A DNA stretch of 64,000 nt from Sphingomonas rosea (lineage in GTDB: Bacteria > Pseudomonadota > Alphaproteobacteria > Sphingomonadales > Sphingomonadaceae): NCBI RefSeq assembly GCF_039538065.1, contig NZ_BAABBR010000001.1, positions 713,501 through 777,500 on the forward strand. Reading direction: 5' to 3'. Both the position numbers and the translations under genes were made by a program. Position 1 is the first letter of the stretch. Each line of letters opens with the position of its first letter. The notes under the pieces were generated by a model, which ran no database searches, was not told the DNA's origin, and saw nothing but the letters and a program-made list of their open reading frames with translations. Of this stretch, positions 50,217 through 63,280 are shown one piece after another.

Positions 50217-51344
50217 TTACCGAACCTCGAGCTCGGGCAGGATCTGGTGGAGCGCGTCGAGGCAGTAGCTGGCGAGCGCCTTCGACCGCTCGGCGCTCCA
50301 GCCATAGACCGGGTCGGCCATCGGCTGGTGATCCTTGAACGGCATTTCGAGCGTCATCGAGACGCAGCCATAGCGCTCGGCGAGCTGGGTCGTGCTCATG
50401 CTCATGTTGGCCTGGCCGGGGCGCGACAGCTCATAGCCTTCCTGGGTCTGGAAGTCGGGGCAGATGCGCTCGAGCGTGTTGGCGAACAGGTGGTACAATT
50501 CCTGCTGGCGGTCGGTGACGCTCGGGATGCCCTCGAAGCCCGCGAGGAAGTTGGCGGCGATCGCCTCGTCGCCGTGGATGTCCATGGCGAAGACGGGCTT
50601 CGCCTCGTCCATCGCGTTGCGGACGCAGAGGACTTCGGGGCTGCGCTCGGCCGAGGGTGCGTGCCACTCGCGGTTCAAGTTGATGCCGGCCGCGTTGGTG
50701 CGCAGGTGGCCGCGGCGGCTCCCGTCGGGGTTCATGTTGGGGACGATGTGGAAGGTGCAGCGTGCACGCAGCGCACGCGCGACCGGATCGTCATAGTCGA
50801 CCAGCTTCTCGAGCGCGCCTTCCATCCACCATTCGGCCATGCTCTCGCCGGGATGCTGGCGGGCGTAGAGCCAGACGGTGAGCGGGCCTTCGCCGACGGT
50901 CAGGCAGTCGATCGGCTGGCCGTCGAGGCTGGTGCCGAGCGTGCGGTGGGTGACCTCGTCGAGCTCGGCCATGGTGGCGATCAGGTCGTGGTGACGCTCC
51001 ATCGAATAAGGGGCGAAATAGGCGACCCACAGGATGTCGGTGTCGGGCGTGACGCTGATGGTGAGGACGCCGTCGGCATAGCTGGTGTCGGCGAGCGTCC
51101 AGCTCTCGCGGTCGGTCGAGATCCGCGCCTGATAGCCCGGCCAGCCGAGCGGATAGGCGCTGTCGCCGCAATTGGTGATGCGCATGTTCAGCGCCTGCCC
51201 GCGCGCGCCCGACACGCGGTAGTAGAACCACTGGCGGAACTCGCCGCCGGCGTCGTCGACGATCTCGAGGTCGAGGGTGGCGCCGTCGCTCTTCACGAGG
51301 CGGATGTTGCCGGCGTCGAACGCGCTGTGGACGGTGATGGTCAT
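50217..51344 (-). CDS. M14-family zinc carboxypeptidase (cytosolic CCP-like)
   Basis: The 375-residue protein has no signal peptide. Its N-terminal beta-sandwich (about residues 1-125, including [20 protein letters not shown]) resembles that of cytosolic carboxypeptidases. The M14 zinc site follows: [16 protein letters not shown] (HxxE), NMNPDG, NLNREW, DIHGDE (third His ligand) and the catalytic Glu in MTLEMPFKD. Eukaryotic CCPs trim glutamates from proteins; the bacterial substrate is unknown. It lies between hutH and gpmA, so it may process peptides that feed histidine or glutamate use. Confidence 0.88.
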
Positions 51345-51362
51345 GGAGCGGCCTCTAAGCGG

Positions 51363-52871
51363 TCAGGGAAGAAGAAGGAAGTCGCCGGTGAAGCCGCCGT
51401 CGAGGATCGCGGCCTGAAGGCTGGCCATTTCGCCGGCGAGCATGCGGTCGGCGCCAAGATGCGGGCTGATCGCGCGAACCCGGGCATGGACCGGCGCCAG
51501 CGCCGGCGAGGTGGCGAGCGGCGCGTGATAGTCGATTCCCTGCGCCCCCGCGATGAGCTCGATCCCGACAATGCCGGCGACGTTGCGGGCGACGCGCTGC
51601 GCCTTGTGCGCGGCGATCGGGGCCATCGAGACGTGATCCTCCTGACCCGCCGAGGTCGGGATCGAATCGACCGAGGCAGGGAAGGCGTGGGCGCGATTCT
51701 CGGCAACCAATGCGGCGGCAGTGACCTGCGGGATCATCAGGCCGCTGTTCACCCCGCCATCGTCGATCAGGAAGGCGGGCAGCCCGCTCATCTTGGGGTC
51801 GACGAGGACCGAGATGCGGCGCTCGGCGAGCGAGCCGATCTCGCACAGGGCCATGGTGATGGTGTCGGCGGCGAAGGCGACCGGCTGGGCGTGGAAATTG
51901 CCACCAGAGATCGCTTCGTCGGGCGAGGTGAAGAGGATCGGATTGTCGGTGACGGCGGCGGCCTCGATGACGAGGGTGCGCGCGGCATTGTGGAGGAGGT
52001 CGAGGCTGGCGCCGAGGACCTGGGGCATGCAGCGGAAGCTGTAGGGATCCTGGACCCGGCCGCAGCGATGGTGCGAGGCGACGATCGCGCTTCCCTCGAG
52101 CAGGTCGCGGAGGATGGCGGCGACGCGGATCTGGCCGGGCTGTCCGCGAAGCTCGGAGAGGCGGGCGTCGAACGGCTTGGCGCTACCCTTCAGCGCGTCG
52201 ACCGACAGTGCGCCGGCGACCAGCGCCGCGCCCATGATCCGCTCGGCGGCAAACAGGGCGTGGAGGGTCGCGGCGGTCGAATATTGGGTGCCGTTGATGA
52301 GCGCGAGGCCTTCCTTGGGGCCGAGCTCGAGCGGGGTCAGCCCAAGCTCGGAAAGGATGGCGGCGGCGGGCCTGACGGTTCCGCGATGCGCGATCTCGCC
52401 ATGGCCCATGAGCGCGGCGGTGAGGTGCGCGAGCGGGGCGAGGTCGCCTGACGCGCCGACGCTGCCCTGGCTGGGGATGACCGGCAGCGCGTCGTGGTCG
52501 AGCAGGGCCTGGAGCGCGTCGACCACGATCCGGCGGACGCCCGAGTGACCGCGGGCGAGGCCGAGGAGCTTGAGCTGGATCATCAGCCGGACGACCGCGC
52601 CCGGCGCGGGATCGCCGAGGCCGCAGCTGTGCGACAGGATGAGGTTTCGCTGCAGCTCGGCGAGCCGGTCGCCGGGGATGCGCTCCTGCGCGAGGAGGCC
52701 GAAGCCGGTGTTGATCCCGTAGACGGTCTCGCCCCCCGCGACGATCCGCGCGACCGTCTCGGCGGCCTGGTCGACCGCGGACAGTGCAGCGTCGCTCAAC
52801 CGGGCGGGGGTGCCGGCCCAGAGCGTGCGAAGGGTGGCGAGGTCGATGGACGCGGGGTCGAGAAGGAGCAT
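51363..52871 (-). CDS. hutH: Histidine ammonia-lyase
   Basis: HutH removes ammonia from histidine to give urocanate, the first step of histidine degradation. The 502-residue protein has GSVGASGDLAPLAH, in which Ala-Ser-Gly forms the MIO cofactor, and GINTGFGLLAQERI, RNLILSHSCGLGD and QEDHVSMAPIAA. All core residues are conserved. It is 18 bases upstream of the M14 gene and 42 bases downstream of the solo winged-helix gene, in one probable operon with the TonB receptor. Confidence 0.97.
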   Translation of the reverse strand: MLLLDPASIDLATLRTLWAGTPARLSDAALSAVDQAAETVARIVAGGETVYGINTGFGLLAQERIPGDRLAELQRNLILSHSCGLGDPAPGAVVRLMIQLKLLGLARGHSGVRRIVVDALQALLDHDALPVIPSQGSVGASGDLAPLAHLTAALMGHGEIAHRGTVRPAAAILSELGLTPLELGPKEGLALINGTQYSTAATLHALFAAERIMGAALVAGALSVDALKGSAKPFDARLSELRGQPGQIRVAAILRDLLEGSAIVASHHRCGRVQDPYSFRCMPQVLGASLDLLHNAARTLVIEAAAVTDNPILFTSPDEAISGGNFHAQPVAFAADTITMALCEIGSLAERRISVLVDPKMSGLPAFLIDDGGVNSGLMIPQVTAAALVAENRAHAFPASVDSIPTSAGQEDHVSMAPIAAHKAQRVARNVAGIVGIELIAGAQGIDYHAPLATSPALAPVHARVRAISPHLGADRMLAGEMASLQAAILDGGFTGDFLLLP

Positions 52872-52913
52872 GGCGGCCCGCTTAGCCGCTAATGGCGCCG
52901 AGCGGTATTCCGG

Positions 52914-53240
52914 TCAGGCCGGCGGCGCGAACATGTAGCCGTGGCCGCGGACGGCGCGGAGGCAGCCTTCGCAGCCGAGCGCGGCGAGCGGCCGGCGGAG
53001 GCGCGAGATGGCGGCGGTGAGCGCGCGCTCGCCGGTGCCTCCGCAGGGAAGGATGGGTTCGAGCTCGGAGCGGGTGACGACCCGCCCCGGCTCGCGCATC
53101 ATCGCCTGGAGGAGCCGCGCCTCGGTCAGGGTCAGCTCCTGCGAGCGGGCCTCGCGGCGGAGACGATAGGCGAGAAGGTCGAGGCGGAGGGGTCCGCAGT
53201 CGATATACGGCTGCGCCCCCTCCTCCATCGTCGTGCCCAT
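52914..53240 (-). CDS. Receiver-less OmpR-type winged-helix transcriptional regulator
   Basis: The 108-residue protein is a single Trans_reg_C domain: QELTLTEARLLQAMMREPGR, then VVTRSELEPILP, ALTAAISRLRRPLAALG and the wing RAVRGHGYMFAP. There is no receiver domain, so it is not an ordinary response regulator. Three Cys in the middle (LPCGG, GCEGC) are unusual and could sense metal or redox, but this is speculation. It starts 4 bases after the TonB-receptor stop and precedes hutH. No HutC-type repressor was found, so it is the candidate regulator of the locus. Confidence 0.85.
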   Translation of the reverse strand: MGTTMEEGAQPYIDCGPLRLDLLAYRLRREARSQELTLTEARLLQAMMREPGRVVTRSELEPILPCGGTGERALTAAISRLRRPLAALGCEGCLRAVRGHGYMFAPPA

Positions 53241-53244
53241 CGGC

Positions 53245-55920
53245 TTAGAACTTCACCGTGCCTTCGAAACCGAAGGTGCGCGGCATGTTGAAGTTGCCAT
53301 AGTCGCCGAGGATGCTGCCCGTCCCGCCGATCGCCAGCAGGTTCGGCGTCTGCAGCGTGCTCGTGGTCTGGACCGACGGGATGCTGTTCGACGGATCGCG
53401 GCGGTAGACATACTGCTCGTTGAACAGGTTGCGCGACCACAGGCTGAGCGTCAGCTCGGTGCCCGGCGAGACGGTGATGTCGGCGAGGCTGACGCGGCCG
53501 TTGACGATGAACGAGCTGTCGGCCTTGGTCGCGAACTGGTCGAACGCCTGGGTGGCCTGGGCGTAGTTCGCATCGAGGTGGAACTTGAGCGCGGCGTCAC
53601 GATAACCGACCGGCAGCTTGTAATCGATCGATCCGCTGGCCGCGTTGCGGGGCGTGAAGACGATGTAGAACTGCTGCGGCACCGTGGTCTGGTTGGCGAC
53701 CGCGCCGACCTGCGTGCAGTTGGCGTTCGGCAGCGGCACCGGGGTCACGGCGGTGCAGAAGGCGGTGTAGGTCACCGGCACCGGCGGGATCTTGGTGTAG
53801 GTGTAGGCGTAAGACGCGCCGATCTGCAGGCCCTCGACCGGGTTCACGGTAATGTCGGCCTCGATGCCCCGGATCTTGGTGGTGCCGGGGGCATTGAAGG
53901 TGACGAGGTTGTTGAAGTTGCCGGTCGCGGTGGGCTGGATGGTCGAGAGGTCGACCTGGCTGCCCTTGCGGTTCATCACATAGCCCGCGACGTTGAGGCG
54001 GACGCGGCGCTCCCACAGCTCGGTCTTGAGGCCGGCCTCGTAGCTCTTCACGTCCTCGGGATTGAAGGCGCGATAGTCGGAGGTGCGGCTGCTGGCGCCG
54101 CCGGCGCGGTAGCCGGTCGCATATTTCAGATAGCCGTGGATGCGCGGGGTGAAGTCGTAGGCGACGATCGCCAGCGGGTTGAAGCGGGTCCACTTCTTGT
54201 CGAGCGGCTTGTAGCCGTTGGCGGCGATGATCGCGGCATTGGCCGGGTTGCGATAGTCGATGTTGCGCGAGACGAGCAGCGCGCCTTCCTTCTTGTCGAC
54301 CGTGTAGCGGCCGCCGACGGTGAGGTGCAGCGCCTCGGTCGCGTTCCAGGTGACCTGGCCATAGGCGGCGTAGCTGCGCGAGCGGACCTTGGACGCGCGG
54401 TCGATGTTGCAGCCGCGGACCGCCACGCCGACGATGTCGTTCGCGGTCGACGGATTGGTGTTCTGGCAGAACGGGATCGGGGCGTAGATCGCCTTGGTCG
54501 GATCGAACACGCCGTTGGTGAGGACCGCAGTCACGCCCATCGAATTGGGGGTGGCGGCGTCGTCGCTGACGCGCTCGTTGAAGTAGAACAGGCCGCCGAC
54601 GTAATCGACCGGGCCGACGGTGCCGACCGCCTGCAGTTCCTGGCTGAACTGGCGCTGGTGGAGGTCGGCGAGGCTGTAGCGGCTGAAGGCGCAGTTGGCG
54701 CCGGCGCAGCCGGCGGTGAGGTTGACGACCGGCACGCGGTGGTAGCCGCCGCTATTGTCCCACTGCTCGACGTCGACCCCGCGCCACGAGGTGATCGAGC
54801 GCAGCTCGAGCTCGGGGATGACCGACCAGCGCAGGCTGTTGGTGTAGCCGAAGGTCTCGTCGCGGCTCTTGCGCTGCGGCACGCCGATGTCCGCGGTGCG
54901 CTGGAGCGTATCGCCGTTGACGACCACGCCCGGGAGCAGCGGGCGGATGGTGCCGGCGGTGCTGGTGAAGGCGGTGCCGGGGGTGACGCAGGTGCTGCCG
55001 GCCGGGATGGCGATCGGCGCGGCGTTGGTGCCGCCGCTCAGGCACTTGTTGGGATTGTAGTTGAGCAGCTGGCTGTAGAAGGGCGTGTTCTTGTCGAGGC
55101 CGTAATCGTACGAGAAATCGTTGGTGATCCCGGTGAGCGGCTTGATGCGCGCCGAGACGCGGCCGCCCTTGCGGTCGAAATAGCCCCAGCCGGCCTGGCC
55201 CGCGAGCGGGTTCTTGGTGATCGGATCCTGGTGCTGGATGATGCCGTCGAGCTTGAGCGCGATGCCCGCGAAGCTCGGCAGGTTGAGGTGGGCATAAGCG
55301 TTGTGCGCGCCGAAGTTGCCCGCGCCGAAGGTCACGTTGCCCTCGAGCTTGCCGGTCGGCGACTTGGTGACGATGCTGAGCGCACCGCCCTCGGTGTTGC
55401 GGCCGAACAACGTCCCCTGCGGGCCCTTGAGGACCTCGATCCGCTCGACGTCGAACAGCGCCGCGTTGAGGCCGTGCTGGCGGCCGAGATAGACGCCGTC
55501 GACATAGACGCCGACGCCCTGCTCGCGGGCGGGCTGGTTGGCGTCCAAGGGCACGATGCCGCGGATGCCGATGGTGAGCGCCGACTGCCGCGCTTCGAAG
55601 GTCGCGATGCGGAGCGAGGGAACGCCGCCGTCGGCGAGGTCGAGAAGGCTCTGGACGCGGCGCTCGCGGATCGTGTCGGCGCCCAGGACCGAGATGGAGA
55701 TGGGGGTCTTCTGGAGGTTGGTCTCGCGCTTGGTCGCGGTGACGACGATTTCCTGGACCTCGACGTTCGAGCCGCCGGTCGGCTGCGCGGCGGCGTCCGT
55801 CGTGCCGGTCTCGGCGGTCACGGTGGCTGCCGGAGCCACCGGAACGTCGGGCGCCGCGAGGGCGGGCGTCGCCACGCCACAAAGAAGGATGGCCGTCGTC
55901 GTACGGAATGCGCTGTTCAT
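53245..55920 (-). CDS. TonB-dependent outer-membrane receptor
   Basis: The 891-residue protein has a signal peptide (NSAFRTTTAILLCGVATPAL) and a TonB box (EIVVTATKRE at about residues 56-65). A plug domain at about 65-190 shows GIRGIVPLDANQPAREQGVG, VYVDGVYLGR and EVLKGPQGTLFGRNTEGGA. A large beta-barrel ends with a C-terminal aromatic, FEGTVKF. Such receptors import metals, siderophores or other nutrients across the outer membrane. Lying between hutU and hutH suggests a histidine- or histidine-peptide-related ligand, but this is inference. A tandem direct repeat precedes it. Confidence 0.93.
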   Translation of the reverse strand: MNSAFRTTTAILLCGVATPALAAPDVPVAPAATVTAETGTTDAAAQPTGGSNVEVQEIVVTATKRETNLQKTPISISVLGADTIRERRVQSLLDLADGGVPSLRIATFEARQSALTIGIRGIVPLDANQPAREQGVGVYVDGVYLGRQHGLNAALFDVERIEVLKGPQGTLFGRNTEGGALSIVTKSPTGKLEGNVTFGAGNFGAHNAYAHLNLPSFAGIALKLDGIIQHQDPITKNPLAGQAGWGYFDRKGGRVSARIKPLTGITNDFSYDYGLDKNTPFYSQLLNYNPNKCLSGGTNAAPIAIPAGSTCVTPGTAFTSTAGTIRPLLPGVVVNGDTLQRTADIGVPQRKSRDETFGYTNSLRWSVIPELELRSITSWRGVDVEQWDNSGGYHRVPVVNLTAGCAGANCAFSRYSLADLHQRQFSQELQAVGTVGPVDYVGGLFYFNERVSDDAATPNSMGVTAVLTNGVFDPTKAIYAPIPFCQNTNPSTANDIVGVAVRGCNIDRASKVRSRSYAAYGQVTWNATEALHLTVGGRYTVDKKEGALLVSRNIDYRNPANAAIIAANGYKPLDKKWTRFNPLAIVAYDFTPRIHGYLKYATGYRAGGASSRTSDYRAFNPEDVKSYEAGLKTELWERRVRLNVAGYVMNRKGSQVDLSTIQPTATGNFNNLVTFNAPGTTKIRGIEADITVNPVEGLQIGASYAYTYTKIPPVPVTYTAFCTAVTPVPLPNANCTQVGAVANQTTVPQQFYIVFTPRNAASGSIDYKLPVGYRDAALKFHLDANYAQATQAFDQFATKADSSFIVNGRVSLADITVSPGTELTLSLWSRNLFNEQYVYRRDPSNSIPSVQTTSTLQTPNLLAIGGTGSILGDYGNFNMPRTFGFEGTVKF

Positions 55921-55988
55921 AATCTGTCCCTTGTCCCCCCGGCAGCGCTGGGCGCCGGCTTGATGCGGGGGCTCTAGGGGCGGGCAAC

Positions 55989-56032
55989 GACAGCTTGATT
56001 GCGCAAGTTCGACAGCTTGGTTGCGTGGATTC
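55989..56032. promoter_or_regulatory. Tandem 22-bp direct repeat upstream of the TonB-receptor gene
   Basis: GACAGCTTGATTGCGCAAGT (55989-56008, ending TC) is followed at once by GACAGCTTGGTTGCGTGGAT (56011-56030, ending TC), then GAC. The two units agree at 17 of 22 positions and abut, two helical turns apart. It lies about 70-110 bases before the receptor start, in the 153-base gap after hutU. It may be an operator for the receptor-wHTH-hutH operon, possibly bound by the solo OmpR-type regulator. Confidence 0.6.
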
Positions 56033-56073
56033 GACGCGGCGATGGCACGGCCGTGACAGGCCGGTGACAGGCC

Positions 56074-57741
<1,668 letters not shown>

Positions 57742-57774
57742 GGCCCGGGGCTTAGCGTCGCCGACGCCGCGCTT

Positions 57775-58170
57775 CTAGCCGAACAGCAGCGCCCACCAGG
57801 TCATGACCAGGCCGACGAGCGAAATCGAGAAGACCAGGGTGCGGATCTTGGGGATGCCGGCGGCGTAGAGCGGCAGGTAGACGATCCGGCCGACCACGTA
57901 GACGATCGAGCCCCAGTGGGTGAGCGGGCCGAGGTGGCCGACGGCCGCGGCGCCGAGCAGGGCGGCGACGAACAAAGGCAGGGTCTCGAACAGATTGGCC
58001 TGCGCCCGAAGCAGTCGCGCTGGGAAGGGATGGAGCGGCGGCACCTGCTCGTCGCGCGCGCCCATGTTCCACTCGGGCCCATATTGCCTGGTCCGCGCGG
58101 CGCCGGCCCAGAGGATGTTGACCAGTGCCAGCAGGATCAGGAGCGCAAGCATGACGAATTCGGTGGGCAT
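57775..58170 (-). CDS. MAPEG-family membrane protein
   Basis: The 131-residue protein has about four membrane helices and the bacterial MAPEG pattern: ARTRQYGPEWNMGARDE, RLLRAQANLFETLPLFVAAL (the QxNxxE motif) and VYVVGRIVYLPLYAAGI. MAPEG proteins include glutathione-dependent enzymes and uncharacterised membrane proteins. It lies between hutI and hutU with short gaps, so it is probably cotranscribed; a role in histidine use is not established. Confidence 0.88.
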   Translation of the reverse strand: MPTEFVMLALLILLALVNILWAGAARTRQYGPEWNMGARDEQVPPLHPFPARLLRAQANLFETLPLFVAALLGAAAVGHLGPLTHWGSIVYVVGRIVYLPLYAAGIPKIRTLVFSISLVGLVMTWWALLFG

Positions 58171-58188
58171 CGGGCGGCCTCGGGTGCG

Positions 58189-59403
58189 TCAGGGTTGGGG
58201 AAGACTGTCCTGCCCGCCAAAAATGCGGCGTTCGGGGAGGAGGCCGAGCCAATAGCCGAGTTCGGCGGGTTCGGCGATCCGCCAGACCGCGAGGTCGGCG
58301 GCCTTGCCGGGTTCGACGGTCCCGACTTCCTGCTCGAGGCCGAGCGCGAGGGCGGCGTTGCGGGTCATGCCGACGATCGCTTCCTCGGGCGAAAGGCCGA
58401 AGAGGTTGCACGCCATGTTCATCGCGAGTTGCGGCACGAGGCTCGGCGAGGTGCCGGGGTTGCAGTCGGAGGCGACCGCGATGCGCACGCCGTGGCGGCG
58501 CAGAAGATCGACCGGCGGCACCCTGGTCTCGCGCAGGGTGTAGAAGGCGCCGGGGAGGAGCACCGCGACGGTGCCGCTCTCGGCCATGGCCCGGGCGCCG
58601 GCCTCGTCGAGATGCTCGAGATGGTCGGCGGACAGTGCGCGGTGGTGGGCGGCGAGCGCGGCGCCGTTCGAGTTGGACAGCTGCTCGGCGTGGAGGCGGA
58701 CGGGGAGGCCTGCGGCGGCGGCGGCCTCGAACAGGCGGGCGGTTTCCTCGGGCGTAAAGGCGATGCCCTCGCAGAAGGCGTCGACGCTGGTCGCGAGGCC
58801 GAGGCGGGCGGCGGTGGGCAAGAGATCCTCGATCACGCGCTCGACGAAGGCCTCGCGGTCGGCGCCCGGCGGCAGCGCGTGGAGCGCGAGCAAGGTCGGC
58901 TCGATCCGCACGGGCTCGGAACGCGCCAGGGTGCGGATGACGTTAAGGAGGCGCAGCTCGCTTGCGGGGTCGAGGCCGTAGCCCGACTTGATCTCGACCG
59001 TTGTGACCCCGCCGCGCATCAGCGCGTGGAGGCGGGTACGGGACTGGGCGAGGAGCGCGGTGACGCTCGCCGCCGCAGTCGCGCGGACGGTCGAGGCGAT
59101 CCCCCCGCCGGCGGCCGCGATCTCTTCATAGCTGGCGCCGGCGCGACGCTGCGCATGCTCGGCGGCACGGGTCCCGCCGAAGACGAGGTGGGTGTGGCAG
59201 TCGACGAGGCCGGGGGTGACGAAGGCGCCGCCCAAGGGCACGACCTCGGTCGCGCGCGTGCCCGCAAGCTCGGTCCGGCGACCGACGCGGACGATGCGGC
59301 CGTCCTGGATCCCGATGGCAGCGTTGCGGATCAGCCCAAGCGGGTCGCCGGGAGCCGGGACCATGGTCATGACATGGCAGTCGGTTAGAAGGCGATCCCA
59401 CAT
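58189..59403 (-). CDS. hutI: Imidazolonepropionase
   Basis: HutI opens the imidazolone ring of imidazolone propionate to N-formiminoglutamate. The 404-residue amidohydrolase has the metal motif DCHTHLVFGGTRAAEH, the GGGIASTVRATAAAS segment, LHALMRGGVTTVEIKSGYGL, the ligand region RLHAEQLSN, and ASDCNPGTSPS with the metal-binding Asp. It starts 36 bases from the divergent hutG. Confidence 0.97.
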   Translation of the reverse strand: MWDRLLTDCHVMTMVPAPGDPLGLIRNAAIGIQDGRIVRVGRRTELAGTRATEVVPLGGAFVTPGLVDCHTHLVFGGTRAAEHAQRRAGASYEEIAAAGGGIASTVRATAAASVTALLAQSRTRLHALMRGGVTTVEIKSGYGLDPASELRLLNVIRTLARSEPVRIEPTLLALHALPPGADREAFVERVIEDLLPTAARLGLATSVDAFCEGIAFTPEETARLFEAAAAAGLPVRLHAEQLSNSNGAALAAHHRALSADHLEHLDEAGARAMAESGTVAVLLPGAFYTLRETRVPPVDLLRRHGVRIAVASDCNPGTSPSLVPQLAMNMACNLFGLSPEEAIVGMTRNAALALGLEQEVGTVEPGKAADLAVWRIAEPAELGYWLGLLPERRIFGGQDSLPQP

Positions 59404-59439: not shown

Positions 59440-60336
59440 ATGACCAGCGCCTGGCCCAATCTCTCCGAGCTTCTCGTCGCCGCCGATGCGGCAGCGCCGG
59501 TCGGACTGGTGGGGGCGCCACTCGGTGTCGGGTCAGTGACGCCGGGCCGCTGCGATCTCGCGCCGGCGGCGCTGCGCGCGGTGCTGCGGCGGATCGGGCG
59601 CTACGATCTCGATACGGAACGCGAGCTGGCGACATTGGTCGCGGACCGCGGCGACGTCGTGCTCGGGGGGAGCATCGAGGCGGCGACGGGGCCGCTGCGC
59701 GCGGCGGTGGCGGCGAGCGTCGGGGCGCACGCGCTGACCTTGCTGATCGGCGGCAACAATGCGGTAACGCGACCGGGCCTGCTCGGCATGGCCGAAGCGC
59801 TTGGGCTGCCGCTGGAACGCTGCGGCCTGATCACGCTCGACGCGCATTTCGACCTGCGCGGGCTCGATCAGGGCTTGAGCAACGGCAATCCGGTCCGGGC
59901 GCTGCTTGGCGACGGCCTGCCGGGCGCGAACATCGTCCAGATCGGGCTGGCCCCCTTCGCCAACAGCCGCGCGATGCACGAGGATGCGGTCGCGGGCGGC
60001 CATCTGGTGATCACCGCGCGCGCGGTGCGCGAGCAGGGAATCGGCGAAGCGATCGATCGCGCGCTCGACCGGCTGGAGGGGGTCGAGGCGATTTTCCTCG
60101 ATTGCGACATCGACGTGATCGAGCGGAGCCAGTTTCCGGCGGCACCGGGCGCGCGGCCGGGAGGCATGGACGTCCACCTCTTCTTCGCGGGCGTCAGGCG
60201 ACTCGCGGCCGAACCGCGGGTGCGCGCGATCGACCTGACCGAGTGGGATCCGCCGCTCGATCCCGGCGATCTGTCGTCGTTGGTGGCGGGACGCTGGCTG
60301 GCCGAGGTGCTGGCCGGGTTCGAACGCCGGGCCTAG
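59440..60336 (+). CDS. hutG: Formimidoylglutamase (arginase family, HutG-like)
   Basis: The 298-residue ureohydrolase would split N-formimidoylglutamate into glutamate and formamide, the last step of the pathway. The metal motifs DAHFD (about residue 131) and DCDIDVIE (about residue 222) are present. The first arginase motif GGDHS appears as GGNNAVT, so the usual first His ligand is missing. The position beside hutI supports the assignment, but activity needs testing; arginase or agmatinase functions remain possible. It ends convergently with the hybrid kinase (4-base overlap). Confidence 0.85.
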
Positions 60337-61898
60337 CCCATCATCTCGTCGATCGCGTCGGCGAGATCGCTGGCGGTAATCGGCTTGCGCAGGACGCGCG
60401 CCTTGCCGTCCACCGCCCGGTCGATCGCCGCGCTGTCGGAGAAGCCGCTGAGGAAGAGCATCCGCAGGTCAGGGCGCAACTCGCGCGCACGGGCGGCAAC
60501 CTCGGCGCCGTTCATCCCCGGCATGGCGAAATCGAGGAGCAGCAGCTCTACCGCCGACCGCTCGAGCTGGAGCAAGGCCTGCGGGCCATCGCCGGCCTCG
60601 GTGACCCGATGCCCGCGCGAGCGGAGCATGTCGGCCACCGCCGCGCGGACTGCGGGATCGTCGTCGACGAGCAGGATTTCGGCCGAACGGGCATTTTCCT
60701 GTCGCGGATCGGCGGCGGCCTGTTCGGGCGGCCCCAGGTCATCCTCGGCGCGCGGAAGGACGAAGGTGACGACCGTCCCCTCCCCTACCTTGCTGTCAAT
60801 GGTGAGGTGGCCGCCCGCGGCGCGCGCGACGCCATAGGCCATCGAGAGGCCAAGGCCGGTGCCGCTCCCCGGGCCCTTGGTGGTGAAGAAGGGTTCGAGC
60901 GCGCGCTCGGCCACTTCGGGGGTCATGCCGACGCCCTGGTCGATGATCCGGATCGCAACCTGATCGCCTTCCGGCTCGGCGCGGACGATGACGGTCCCGC
61001 CCATCGGCATGGCGTCACGACCGTTGATTGCGCAGTTGAGGATGGCAAGCTCGAGCTGGGTCGGGTCGGCGCGCACCGTGCCGACGTCGTCGGCGACCTC
61101 GACCTTGAGGCTCACGGTCGGGCCGACCGAATTGCGGAGCAATCCCTCCATCCCGCCGACGAGCCTGGCGACGTTGACGGGTCGCGCCTCAAGCCGCTGC
61201 TGGCGCGAGAAGGTGAGGAGCTGGCCGGTGAGCTTGGTCCCGCGCTCGGTCGCCTGCGCAGCATTGGCGGCCCAGCGCGCGACCTTGTCGGGCTTGTCGG
61301 GCATCATGCCGATGAGTTCGATATTGCCCGAGATCGCCTGCAGCAGATTGTTGAAGTCGTGGGCGATCCCGCCGGTGAGCTGGCCGACCGCCTCCATCTT
61401 GTTGGCCTGGACGAGGGCGGCCTCGGCGCGCTCGCGCTGGATGACTTCGGCGCGGAGCTGCCCGAGCACGTCGTCGCGCTCTGCCAGCGCGGCGGCGAGT
61501 TCGTCGTTCTTGCGCTGGAGCATCGAGGGGCTGGGGATCGCGAGCATCCGCGGGAGCAGCGGCCAGAGCAGGATCGCCGTCGGGATGCTGGCCGCGGCGG
61601 TAAGCGCCTTGACGACCGCCTCGAGCGCATAGTCGCCATGCCACAGGTTCCAGATGGCGAGGACGTGCGTCAGGCCGCAGGAAAGGATGAACAGCGCGAA
61701 CAGCCAGAACATCTTCCCGAATTCGATGTCGGGTCGACGGCGGACGAAGCTCACGAGCACTATCGGGATAGAAAAGTAGGCGATCGCAATCAGGGCGTCG
61801 GAGACGACGTGCGTCCAGATCAGGCCTGGCTGCCACAAGAGGCAGTAGCCGTGGGGCTGAAACTGCCCGGAGAAGAAGGTGACGGCGGCTTCAAGCAT
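60333..61898 (-). CDS. Hybrid histidine kinase with ethylene-receptor-like sensor
   Basis: The 521-residue protein has three parts. The N-terminal membrane domain (about residues 25-115) copies the plant ETR1 ethylene-binding sensor: DALIAIAYFSIP with D34, Y41, I44 and P45, and ILSCGLTH with C74 and H78, at the same spacing as D25, Y32, I35, P36, C65 and H69 of ETR1. A kinase core with the H-box GGIAHDFNNLL (H180), N-box NCAINGRDAM and G-box GTGLGLSMAYG follows, then a receiver with D456 (LLLLDFAMPG). In ETR1 the Cys/His pair binds Cu(I) for ethylene. No GAF or PAS domain is present. Confidence 0.9.
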   Translation of the reverse strand: MLEAAVTFFSGQFQPHGYCLLWQPGLIWTHVVSDALIAIAYFSIPIVLVSFVRRRPDIEFGKMFWLFALFILSCGLTHVLAIWNLWHGDYALEAVVKALTAAASIPTAILLWPLLPRMLAIPSPSMLQRKNDELAAALAERDDVLGQLRAEVIQRERAEAALVQANKMEAVGQLTGGIAHDFNNLLQAISGNIELIGMMPDKPDKVARWAANAAQATERGTKLTGQLLTFSRQQRLEARPVNVARLVGGMEGLLRNSVGPTVSLKVEVADDVGTVRADPTQLELAILNCAINGRDAMPMGGTVIVRAEPEGDQVAIRIIDQGVGMTPEVAERALEPFFTTKGPGSGTGLGLSMAYGVARAAGGHLTIDSKVGEGTVVTFVLPRAEDDLGPPEQAAADPRQENARSAEILLVDDDPAVRAAVADMLRSRGHRVTEAGDGPQALLQLERSAVELLLLDFAMPGMNGAEVAARARELRPDLRMLFLSGFSDSAAIDRAVDGKARVLRKPITASDLADAIDEMMG

Positions 61899-62013: not shown

Positions 62014-62469
62014 TTAAGCGGCTCGCGGCGGCATCGGTTGGGGCGCTTGTCGGGGCGGCGGCTGGGTTTCAAAGGACGGTTGCCGTTGAACCCGGCGGCG
62101 CGATGCGCGGCGTGCGCCCGGCGGTTCAGGCGCGTTTTTCAGCGGCCGTGAAGATTGCGCAGAAACCGAGATCTTGAGGAGGACGTCCTTGTCGTCAAGT
62201 CCGAGGAGCAGGGACGCGAGCTGGTCCCCCGCCTTTTCGGTGCGGAAACAGTCGACCACGCAATCGACGCTGCGGTATTGCATCACCTTGCGCATGGCGC
62301 GATCGCCCATGCGATAGGGTTCGTTCGTACGCGTGGCGACCACGTCGTCGAGGGCGCGGCCGAGCGGCTTGCCCGCGCGCGACCAGAGCGTGAAGGCTCC
62401 GCCGCGGCGCCGGGCGAGGCTTCCGGCGTCGCCGCCGCGGTCACGCCAATCGGATCCATACCGGCGCAT
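62014..62469 (-). CDS. Basic hypothetical protein
   Basis: The 151-residue protein has no recognised family. The middle (about residues 48-100: MGDRAMRKVMQYRSVDCVVD, then CFRTEKAGDQLASLLLGLDD) looks folded, while the ends are Arg/Pro/Gln-rich. Its start ATG at 62469 overlaps the end of the xth gene by 29 bases in another frame, so it may be translationally coupled. No clear ribosome-binding site is seen, and codon bias alone argues that it is coding; it may be spurious. Confidence 0.5.
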   Translation of the reverse strand: MRRYGSDWRDRGGDAGSLARRRGGAFTLWSRAGKPLGRALDDVVATRTNEPYRMGDRAMRKVMQYRSVDCVVDCFRTEKAGDQLASLLLGLDDKDVLLKISVSAQSSRPLKNAPEPPGARRASRRRVQRQPSFETQPPPRQAPQPMPPRAA

Positions 62470-63211
62470 GATCGCTCGTCTTCGGCATTGATCGCACCGA
62501 CCGGTCGACTCCGGCCTCCACGAGTCGCGCCGCGGCGGCCGGATTGAGGAGCTGGTGGTCGATCCTGAGACCCGCGTCGCGGGCGAAGGCGTTGCGGAAA
62601 TAGTCCCAGAAAGTGAAGATCCGCTCGTCGGCATGACGATGGCGGAGCGCGTCGGTCCAGCCGGCGGTGGTGAGCCGCGCGAAGGCGTCGCGGACCTCGG
62701 GCGCGAAAAGCGCATCATCGACCCAGCGCTCCGGCTTGTACGCGTCGGCCTCGGTCGGGATGACATTGTAGTCGCCGGCGAGGACAACCGGCTCCTCGAG
62801 CTGGATGAGCTCGGCCGCGAGCGTTTCGAAGGCCGCGATCCAGGCGAGCTTGTAGTCGTATTTGGGACCGGGCCGCGGATTGCCATTGGGCAAATAGAGG
62901 CAGCCGACGAGGACGCCGTCGATTGCTGCCTCGAGGTAGCGGCTCTGCGAAGGATCGGGATCGTTCGGGAGGCCGCGGCGGGTTTCGAGCGGCTCCTTGC
63001 CGCGCGCGAGGATCGCGACCCCGTTCCAGCTCTTCTGGCCGTGCCAGATCGCGCCGTAGCCCGCATCGCGGATCGCCGCTTCGGGGAATTTCTCGTTCGG
63101 TGCCTTGAGCTCCTGGAGACAGACGACGTCGGGCTGCGTGGTCGACAGCCAGTCGAGCAGGACCGGGAGGCGCCCGTTGACGCCGTTCACATTGTAGGTC
63201 GCGATCCGCAC
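62441..63211 (-). CDS. xth: Exodeoxyribonuclease III
   Basis: The AP endonuclease / 3'-5' exonuclease of base-excision repair. The 256-residue protein has RIATYNVNGVNGRLPVLLDWL, CLQELKAPNEKFP with the metal-binding Glu, YLPNGN, AGDYNVIPTEADAY, RIDHQLL and the catalytic SDHAPVW at the end. The GTG at 63211 was chosen because a TTG at 63253 would start within the upstream tRNA terminator; either is uncertain. The final bases overlap the hypothetical gene. Confidence 0.95.
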   Translation of the reverse strand: MRIATYNVNGVNGRLPVLLDWLSTTQPDVVCLQELKAPNEKFPEAAIRDAGYGAIWHGQKSWNGVAILARGKEPLETRRGLPNDPDPSQSRYLEAAIDGVLVGCLYLPNGNPRPGPKYDYKLAWIAAFETLAAELIQLEEPVVLAGDYNVIPTEADAYKPERWVDDALFAPEVRDAFARLTTAGWTDALRHRHADERIFTFWDYFRNAFARDAGLRIDHQLLNPAAAARLVEAGVDRSVRSMPKTSDHAPVWIRLA

Positions 63212-63249
63212 GCGAAGGAGACGTCTGGCAAGCCGCTTGGCTCCAAACG

Positions 63250-63280
63250 ACAAAAGGCCGCCCCGAAGGACGGCCTTTGC
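63250..63280 (-). terminator. Rho-independent terminator after tRNA-fMet
   Basis: AAAGGCCG (63253-63260) pairs with CGGCCTTT (63271-63278), extended by inner G-C pairs around CCCGAAGGA. Read on the minus strand it lies just past the tRNA and is followed by TTTTGTCG, so it ends the rrn operon or the tRNA transcript. Confidence 0.85.

What the first reader, a model, noticed from the sequence alone, without database searches (positions are those of the whole stretch)
60333..61898. Hybrid histidine kinase with an ETR1-type ethylene-binding domain
The membrane sensor has the plant ethylene-receptor residues at identical spacing: D34, Y41, I44, P45, C74 and H78 correspond to ETR1 D25, Y32, I35, P36, C65 and H69, both sets shifted by exactly 9. 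The Cys/His pair that holds Cu(I) in ETR1 is intact. Unlike ETR1 there is no GAF domain; the sensor runs straight into a coiled coil, a kinase core and a receiver. Ethylene-binding domains are known in cyanobacteria, where SynEtr1 responds to ethylene. A proteobacterial one with a complete binding set could sense ethylene or another small olefin, or only copper.
Basis: partly seen in the sequence, partly recalled or inferred. Interest (0 to 1): 0.75.

Follow-up and report, generated by a model that had tools for sequence, protein, structure and literature searches.

The report
Sphingomonad ethylene-receptor-like sensor kinase
This bacterium carries a membrane sensor built on the same ethylene-binding module as the plant ethylene receptor; such sensors are already known in bacteria, so this is a sound but ordinary new example, with one little-studied conserved motif before the metal site.

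Summary
The gene at 61898..60333 (minus strand, 521 aa) begins with a full ethylene-binding domain (Pfam ETR1_N, 4.4e-39). All seven residues needed for ethylene binding in ETR1 are present, plus the conserved lysine. Kinase and receiver motifs look intact.

It is no surprise. Proteobacterial receptors are in print, and Azospirillum AzoEtr1 binds ethylene; its sensor is 47% identical. ETR1_N occurs in 13 of 71 genomes of the genus, 18 of 149 sampled of the family and 29 of 398 of the phylum. Lack of GAF is usual: 0 of 87 relatives scanned have it.

The gene lies beside hut genes in 7 of 8 hybrid-type genomes of the genus, but convergent with hutG and absent from many genomes that keep hut, so a hut role is not supported.

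Possibly new: an outer His-x-x-Cys (H16, C19), kept in 101 of 105 domains with the copper Cys/His and 1 of 11 without. Many other conserved columns are co-lost too, so this is a lead only. No copper P-type ATPase passes its cut-off. Nothing was measured.

The parts
60333..61898 (-). EBD hybrid histidine kinase gene, 521 aa
61842..61853 (-). outer His-x-x-Cys (H16..C19, motif PHGxCLLW) just before helix 1
   Evidence: invariant in the 87 bacterial rows of A4; co-lost with the copper pair
61539..61829 (-). three-helix ethylene-binding domain, residues 24-120
   Evidence: ETR1_N 26-121; helices 24-54, 61-83, 90-120 in the AF2 model
61764..61799 (-). helix 1 residues D34, Y41, I44, P45
   Evidence: match ETR1 D25, Y32, I35, P36
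61665..61679 (-). CGLTH: C74 and H78, the expected Cu(I) ligand pair
   Evidence: match ETR1 C65, H69
61197..61385 (-). HisKA dimerisation/phosphoacceptor domain, H180
   Evidence: PF00512 1.1e-7, motif AHDFNN at 179
60747..61067 (-). HATPase_c catalytic domain
   Evidence: PF02518 1.7e-20
60351..60677 (-). receiver domain, expected phosphoacceptor D456
   Evidence: PF00072 9.5e-21, motif LLDFAMPG at 454
59440..60336 (+). hutG-like arginase-family gene (formimidoylglutamase by context), convergent, overlapping the kinase gene by 4 bases
   Evidence: PF00491 4.5e-40; coordinates
62441..63253 (-). exoA-like exonuclease gene on the other side, same strand
   Evidence: PF03372 4.1e-27

Best explanation
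A Cu(I)-dependent sensor of ethylene (or a like small olefin) of the bacterial SynEtr1/AzoEtr1 kind. Shown here: a three-helix domain with all seven binding residues, joined by a long helix to a histidine kinase and a receiver with intact motifs. Inferred: Cu(I) sits between C74 and H78 in the outer half of the membrane. Ethylene binding on the copper shifts the helices, perhaps through D34-K97. This changes autophosphorylation at H180 and transfer to D456. The phosphate then goes on to an unlinked Hpt protein or ChpT and a response regulator that is not identified. The gene looks like an accessory trait, held at one locus in part of the genus and often missing from it.
For: ETR1_N 4.4e-39. 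Seven binding residues plus K97. 47% identity over 127 residues to AzoEtr1, whose residues 1-130 bind ethylene when expressed in yeast. 91 of 118 distinct domains from genome searches keep all seven residues exactly. Kinase and receiver motifs present. Five Hpt places and one strong ChpT-type match in the genome; the kinase and receiver part scores best against PRK13557 and CckA models, below their cut-offs.
Against: No binding was measured. No copper or heavy-metal P-type ATPase model passes its cut-off in the genome, so the plant way of loading copper seems to be missing. No response regulator gene is adjacent. 58 of 71 genomes of the genus have no match. Three aligned domains keep C74 and H78 but lack other ethylene-site residues, so the copper pair alone does not prove the ligand (L062, L245 and L248).
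Confidence: 0.75

Rival explanations
1. A Cu(I) sensor: the same Cys/His pair reports copper itself, and ethylene is not the natural signal.
For: The pair is a copper site in ETR1 (PMC13012798, section 6). The outer H16/C19 could add ligands. No Cu ATPase over cut-off in the genome.
Against: Non-copper residues of the ethylene site (Y41, P45, I71) are mostly kept where C74/H78 are kept and mostly lost where they are lost. AzoEtr1 with the same set binds ethylene. No copper genes among the eight neighbouring proteins scanned.
Confidence: 0.12
2. A local regulator of histidine utilisation that uses ethylene as a plant or carbon/nitrogen signal, encoded with the hut cluster.
For: 7 of 8 hybrid-type copies in the genus lie between exoA and hutG-hutI-hutU. 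Ethylene lowers nitrogen metabolism in A. brasilense (PMC11819568, passages).
Against: It is convergent with hutG in all seven, so it is not in the hutI operon. hutG and hutI stand side by side in 18 of 18 examined loci that have no ethylene-domain match at all. A tree of HutI, HutU and HutG needs at least four changes of presence. The eighth copy in the genus and 5 of 5 hybrid-type copies looked at in other genera have no hut gene within the stretch fetched, about 8-9 kb on each side.
Confidence: 0.06
3. A relic sensor: the residues are kept for folding, and copper or ethylene is not bound in this lineage.
For: The gene has decayed or is missing in near relatives (G205 remnant, G170).
Against: This copy is open over its whole length, and its sensor is 76-82% identical to full-length copies in six named Sphingomonas species.
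Confidence: 0.07

Closest known systems
AzoEtr1 of Azospirillum brasilense (PMC11819568; sequence taken from the Sp7 plasmid, L289:2977-4554, recognised by strain, length of 525 aa and neighbours)
   Same: Alphaproteobacterial, N-terminal ethylene-binding domain with all seven residues and the outer PHGxC motif, histidine kinase; sensor 47% identical
   Different: AzoEtr1 has a PAS domain and a separate response regulator gene just downstream; the window protein has neither but carries its own receiver
SynEtr1 of Synechocystis PCC 6803
   Same: Ethylene-binding domain on a bacterial histidine kinase (PMC11819568 and PMC6682694, passages)
   Different: SynEtr1 also senses light and signals to the response regulator slr1213; its own sequence was not compared here, only other cyanobacterial domains, about 50-60% identical to the window's
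ETR1 of Arabidopsis
   Same: Seven binding residues and the lysine
   Different: ETR1 has a GAF domain (PMC13012798, passages) and lacks the His of the HxxC motif; about a third of aligned sensor residues identical (ETR1 letters recalled)
PRK13557 / CckA type hybrid kinases
   Same: Kinase plus receiver part (9.7e-96 and 1e-77)
   Different: Below those families' cut-offs; different sensor

Membership tests
ETR1-type ethylene-binding-domain receptor | ETR1_N domain over its curated cut-off | tested here: met
   133.1 bits against 27
ETR1-type ethylene-binding-domain receptor | Seven residues required for ethylene binding in ETR1 | tested here: met
   D34 Y41 I44 P45 I71 C74 H78
ETR1-type ethylene-binding-domain receptor | Three transmembrane helices joined to a signalling output | tested here: met
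   AF2 helices 24-54, 61-83, 90-120 then a long helix; HisKA, HATPase_c, receiver. Membrane insertion itself was not predicted by a dedicated program
ETR1-type ethylene-binding-domain receptor | High-affinity saturable ethylene binding with Cu(I) | not testable with these tools
   needs a binding assay
Plant ethylene receptor (ETR1) | GAF domain after the membrane domain | tested here: not met
   no GAF in the Pfam scan
Plant ethylene receptor (ETR1) | Copper loading by a RAN1-like P-type ATPase | tested here: not met
   no TIGR01511 or TIGR01525 match over cut-off in the genome, given as 99.96% complete
AzoEtr1-type two-gene arrangement | Response regulator gene next to the receptor gene | tested here: not met
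   neighbours are hutG-like and exoA-like
Hybrid histidine kinase | Phosphoacceptor His, ATP-binding boxes and receiver Asp | tested here: met
   H180, G boxes, D456

The most novel reading that the evidence does not exclude
Bacterial ethylene receptors hold or take up Cu(I) through a second His-x-x-Cys site at the outer mouth of the sensor (H16, C19 here), which plants replaced by dedicated copper delivery. In this bacterium, which has no recognised copper P-type ATPase, that site would load the receptor straight from the periplasm.
Probability: 0.17. Interest if true: 0.6.

Novelty: new member of a known kind. Interest (0 to 1): 0.3.

Why it matters
It adds a compact sphingomonad receptor (no PAS, no GAF, its own receiver) to the few bacterial ethylene receptors studied, in a genus where relatives with and without the gene allow simple comparisons. 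The outer His-x-x-Cys, if it handles copper, would suggest how bacteria load these receptors without a RAN1-like pump, a point that I did not find addressed in the passages read.

Tried and rejected
Hut regulator: rejected as the leading reading after looking at genomes that keep hutG-hutI without the kinase. A solved structure of the domain by sequence: no convincing match, only three potassium-channel chains at E 0.79-0.97. General decay as the cause of the His-x-x-Cys association: not excluded. Of the 25 conserved columns tested besides C74 and H78, 20 are also lost more often where the copper pair is lost (Fisher p < 0.05). H16 ranks second, after I71, and C19 seventh; only D34, K97, S104, R55 and W86 show no clear association. 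On a tree, six independent pairs differ in the copper pair; HxxC goes the same way in 5.5 on average (sign test median p 0.06), against 1.0, 1.4, 3.9 and 2.5 for four control column pairs. I chose those controls, and two of them (W86/R55, D34/K97) are made of columns already seen to be unassociated, so they flatter the result. A disulfide role for C19 is the published suggestion for cyanobacteria (PMC6682694, passages) and is not excluded. Fold searches of the model never ran because the machine was busy. The second structure job (ethylene-binding domain alone) had not finished at the last look.

Full report
What is there. The gene reads from 61898 down to 60333: 521 residues, ethylene-binding domain at 26-121 (ETR1_N, 4.4e-39), HisKA 172-234, HATPase_c 278-384, receiver 408-516. 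It is the only ETR1_N place found in the 2.68-Mb genome. The review passages read here describe C65/H69 as the copper ligands, a proposed salt bridge between the binding aspartate and a conserved lysine, and the lack of a high-resolution structure of the plant membrane domain (PMC13012798, section 6). The shift of 9 ends after helix 2.

How common. Matches at E <= 0.001: 13 of 71 genomes of the genus, 18 of 149 of the family, 48 of 396 of the order, 28 of 385 of the class, 29 of 398 of the phylum, and 0 of 14 control genomes in each of these searches. The samples overlap and all include the window's own genome. A protein search with residues 1-130 gave 2362 relatives at E <= 0.001 among 2873 candidates, of which I saw the 120 best; the nearest named ones are Sphingomonas species. 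Of the 13 genomes of the genus, eight have the hybrid type (judged by length and full-length match; receiver confirmed by Pfam for the window, L029 and L035), four have a shorter type (an HWE kinase in the one scanned), and one (G205) has a remnant.

Conservation. From 121 loci of the genome searches, 119 gave a domain and 118 were distinct; 91 of 118 have all seven residues exactly. A second set, 80 loci from named genomes, was found with a pattern that demands Y41, P45 and I or V at 44, so it cannot be used to judge those columns. It shows domains about 50-70% identical to the window's in other sphingomonads, Methylobacterium, Bradyrhizobium, Tardiphaga and cyanobacteria. In a tree of 125 domains (11 of 136 rows left out, the most diverged and the cut ones) the window lies with the six genus copies that share its locus (support 100/96). 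The recalled ETR1 joins cyanobacteria on a very long branch, so its exact place is unsure; many forks are unresolved and the bootstrap had not settled. For domain make-up I scanned 87 relatives (13 of the class-level loci and the 74 complete ones of the 80 named loci): 83 have HATPase_c, 60 HisKA, 37 a receiver, at least 31 a PAS domain and none GAF at 1e-5.

Close experimental relative. The AzoEtr1 gene was found on the Sp7 plasmid, where the record held here has no annotation for that stretch: 525 aa, 47% identical over 127 residues of the sensor. [quoted passage not shown] That is the strongest reason to expect ethylene binding here. It is inference: binding was not tested.

Locus. In 7 of 8 hybrid-type copies of the genus the gene lies between exoA (with a ligase-like gene in five of the six relatives) and hutG-hutI-hutU, always convergent with hutG. 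I then fetched hutI loci from 20 of the 71 genomes: one has an ethylene-domain remnant (G205), one has its copy elsewhere (G175), 18 have no match in the stretch, and hutG and hutI stand side by side in all 20. On a tree of HutI, HutU and HutG from 26 loci (one of the 20, L133, dropped for want of hutU) the loci without the kinase are mixed with those that have it, which needs at least four changes. An old insertion with repeated loss fits, though repeated gain is not excluded; either way the hut genes are kept without the kinase.

Downstream path. Hybrid kinases usually need an Hpt protein. The genome has five Hpt places, three of them in short open frames (164, 144 and 96 aa), and one strong ChpT-type match (4.9e-33, 229-aa frame) besides weak ones in kinases, the window's included. 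The kinase part scores best against PRK13557 and CckA models. ChpT is therefore a candidate partner; this is a guess.

Copper supply. No copper or heavy-metal P1B ATPase model passes its cut-off in the genome, while 13 of 14 control genomes pass in each search. The one place that matches below cut-off is a 1010-aa frame whose translation I read by eye as KdpB-like, next to a KdpA-like frame; it was not scanned. A RAN1-like route therefore seems absent; other copper carriers were not searched for.

The outer motif. P15, H16 and C19 are invariant in the 87-row alignment of bacterial relatives. In the pattern-free set, after dropping two broken rows (L026, L059), 116 domains remain: 105 keep C74 and H78, 11 do not. 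H16 and C19 are both kept in 101 of 105 and 1 of 11. By single column, H16 is lost in 8 of 11 against 3 of 105, second only to I71 outside the copper pair, and C19 in 6 of 11 against 3 of 105. Against this reading: 20 of the 25 conserved columns besides C74 and H78 are associated with the loss at p < 0.05, so part of the signal is general decay; D34, K97, S104, R55 and W86 are not clearly associated. With relatedness allowed for, HxxC goes the same way in 5.5 of 6 independent pairs, sign test about 0.06, against 1.0 to 3.9 for four control column pairs that I chose. The single N-terminal cysteine of cyanobacterial receptors has been noted before as a possible disulfide cysteine (PMC6682694, passages); the histidine was not mentioned in the passages I read. 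ETR1 lacks the histidine, and one of its two N-terminal cysteines may align with C19. A copper-entry or extra-ligand role is my inference. Whether it is in print was looked for only by the searches, of which I saw the listings, and the passages named.

Verdict. The protein is most likely a Cu(I)-dependent ethylene sensor of a kind already known in bacteria; its GAF-less form is normal among relatives. The interest lies in the outer His-x-x-Cys and in copper loading without a recognised pump.

Noticed in passing
window 62173-62361 (-): Apparent remnant of the ligase-like gene that stands between exoA and the kinase in five of the six relatives with the same locus; only 63 residues of the relative's protein still match, at 56%.
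   Followed up: partly
L079, L080, L081, L082: The second, shorter ethylene-binding-domain kinase type of the genus lies between nusG-like and rplK-rplA-like genes in the four genomes that have it; those names come from reading the translated neighbours, not from a scan.
   Followed up: partly
L117 7813-8013 (G205): A decayed copy of the ethylene-binding domain (matching residues 1-67 only) beside hutG, in a rearranged hut region.
   Followed up: partly
window 50217-59403 (-): Hut cluster with an aromatic amino acid lyase (hutH), a TonB receptor, urocanase, a MAPEG protein and hutI-like amidohydrolase on one strand, followed by an M14 carboxypeptidase gene.
   Followed up: no
L043, L047: Alphaproteobacterial frames of 142 and 153 codons that hold an ethylene-binding domain and no room for a kinase.
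   Followed up: no
L246, L247, L060, L272 and others: Relatives with open frames of 431-555 codons whose ethylene-binding domain has lost C74 or H78, so some family members may sense something else or nothing; their output domains were not scanned.
   Followed up: partly
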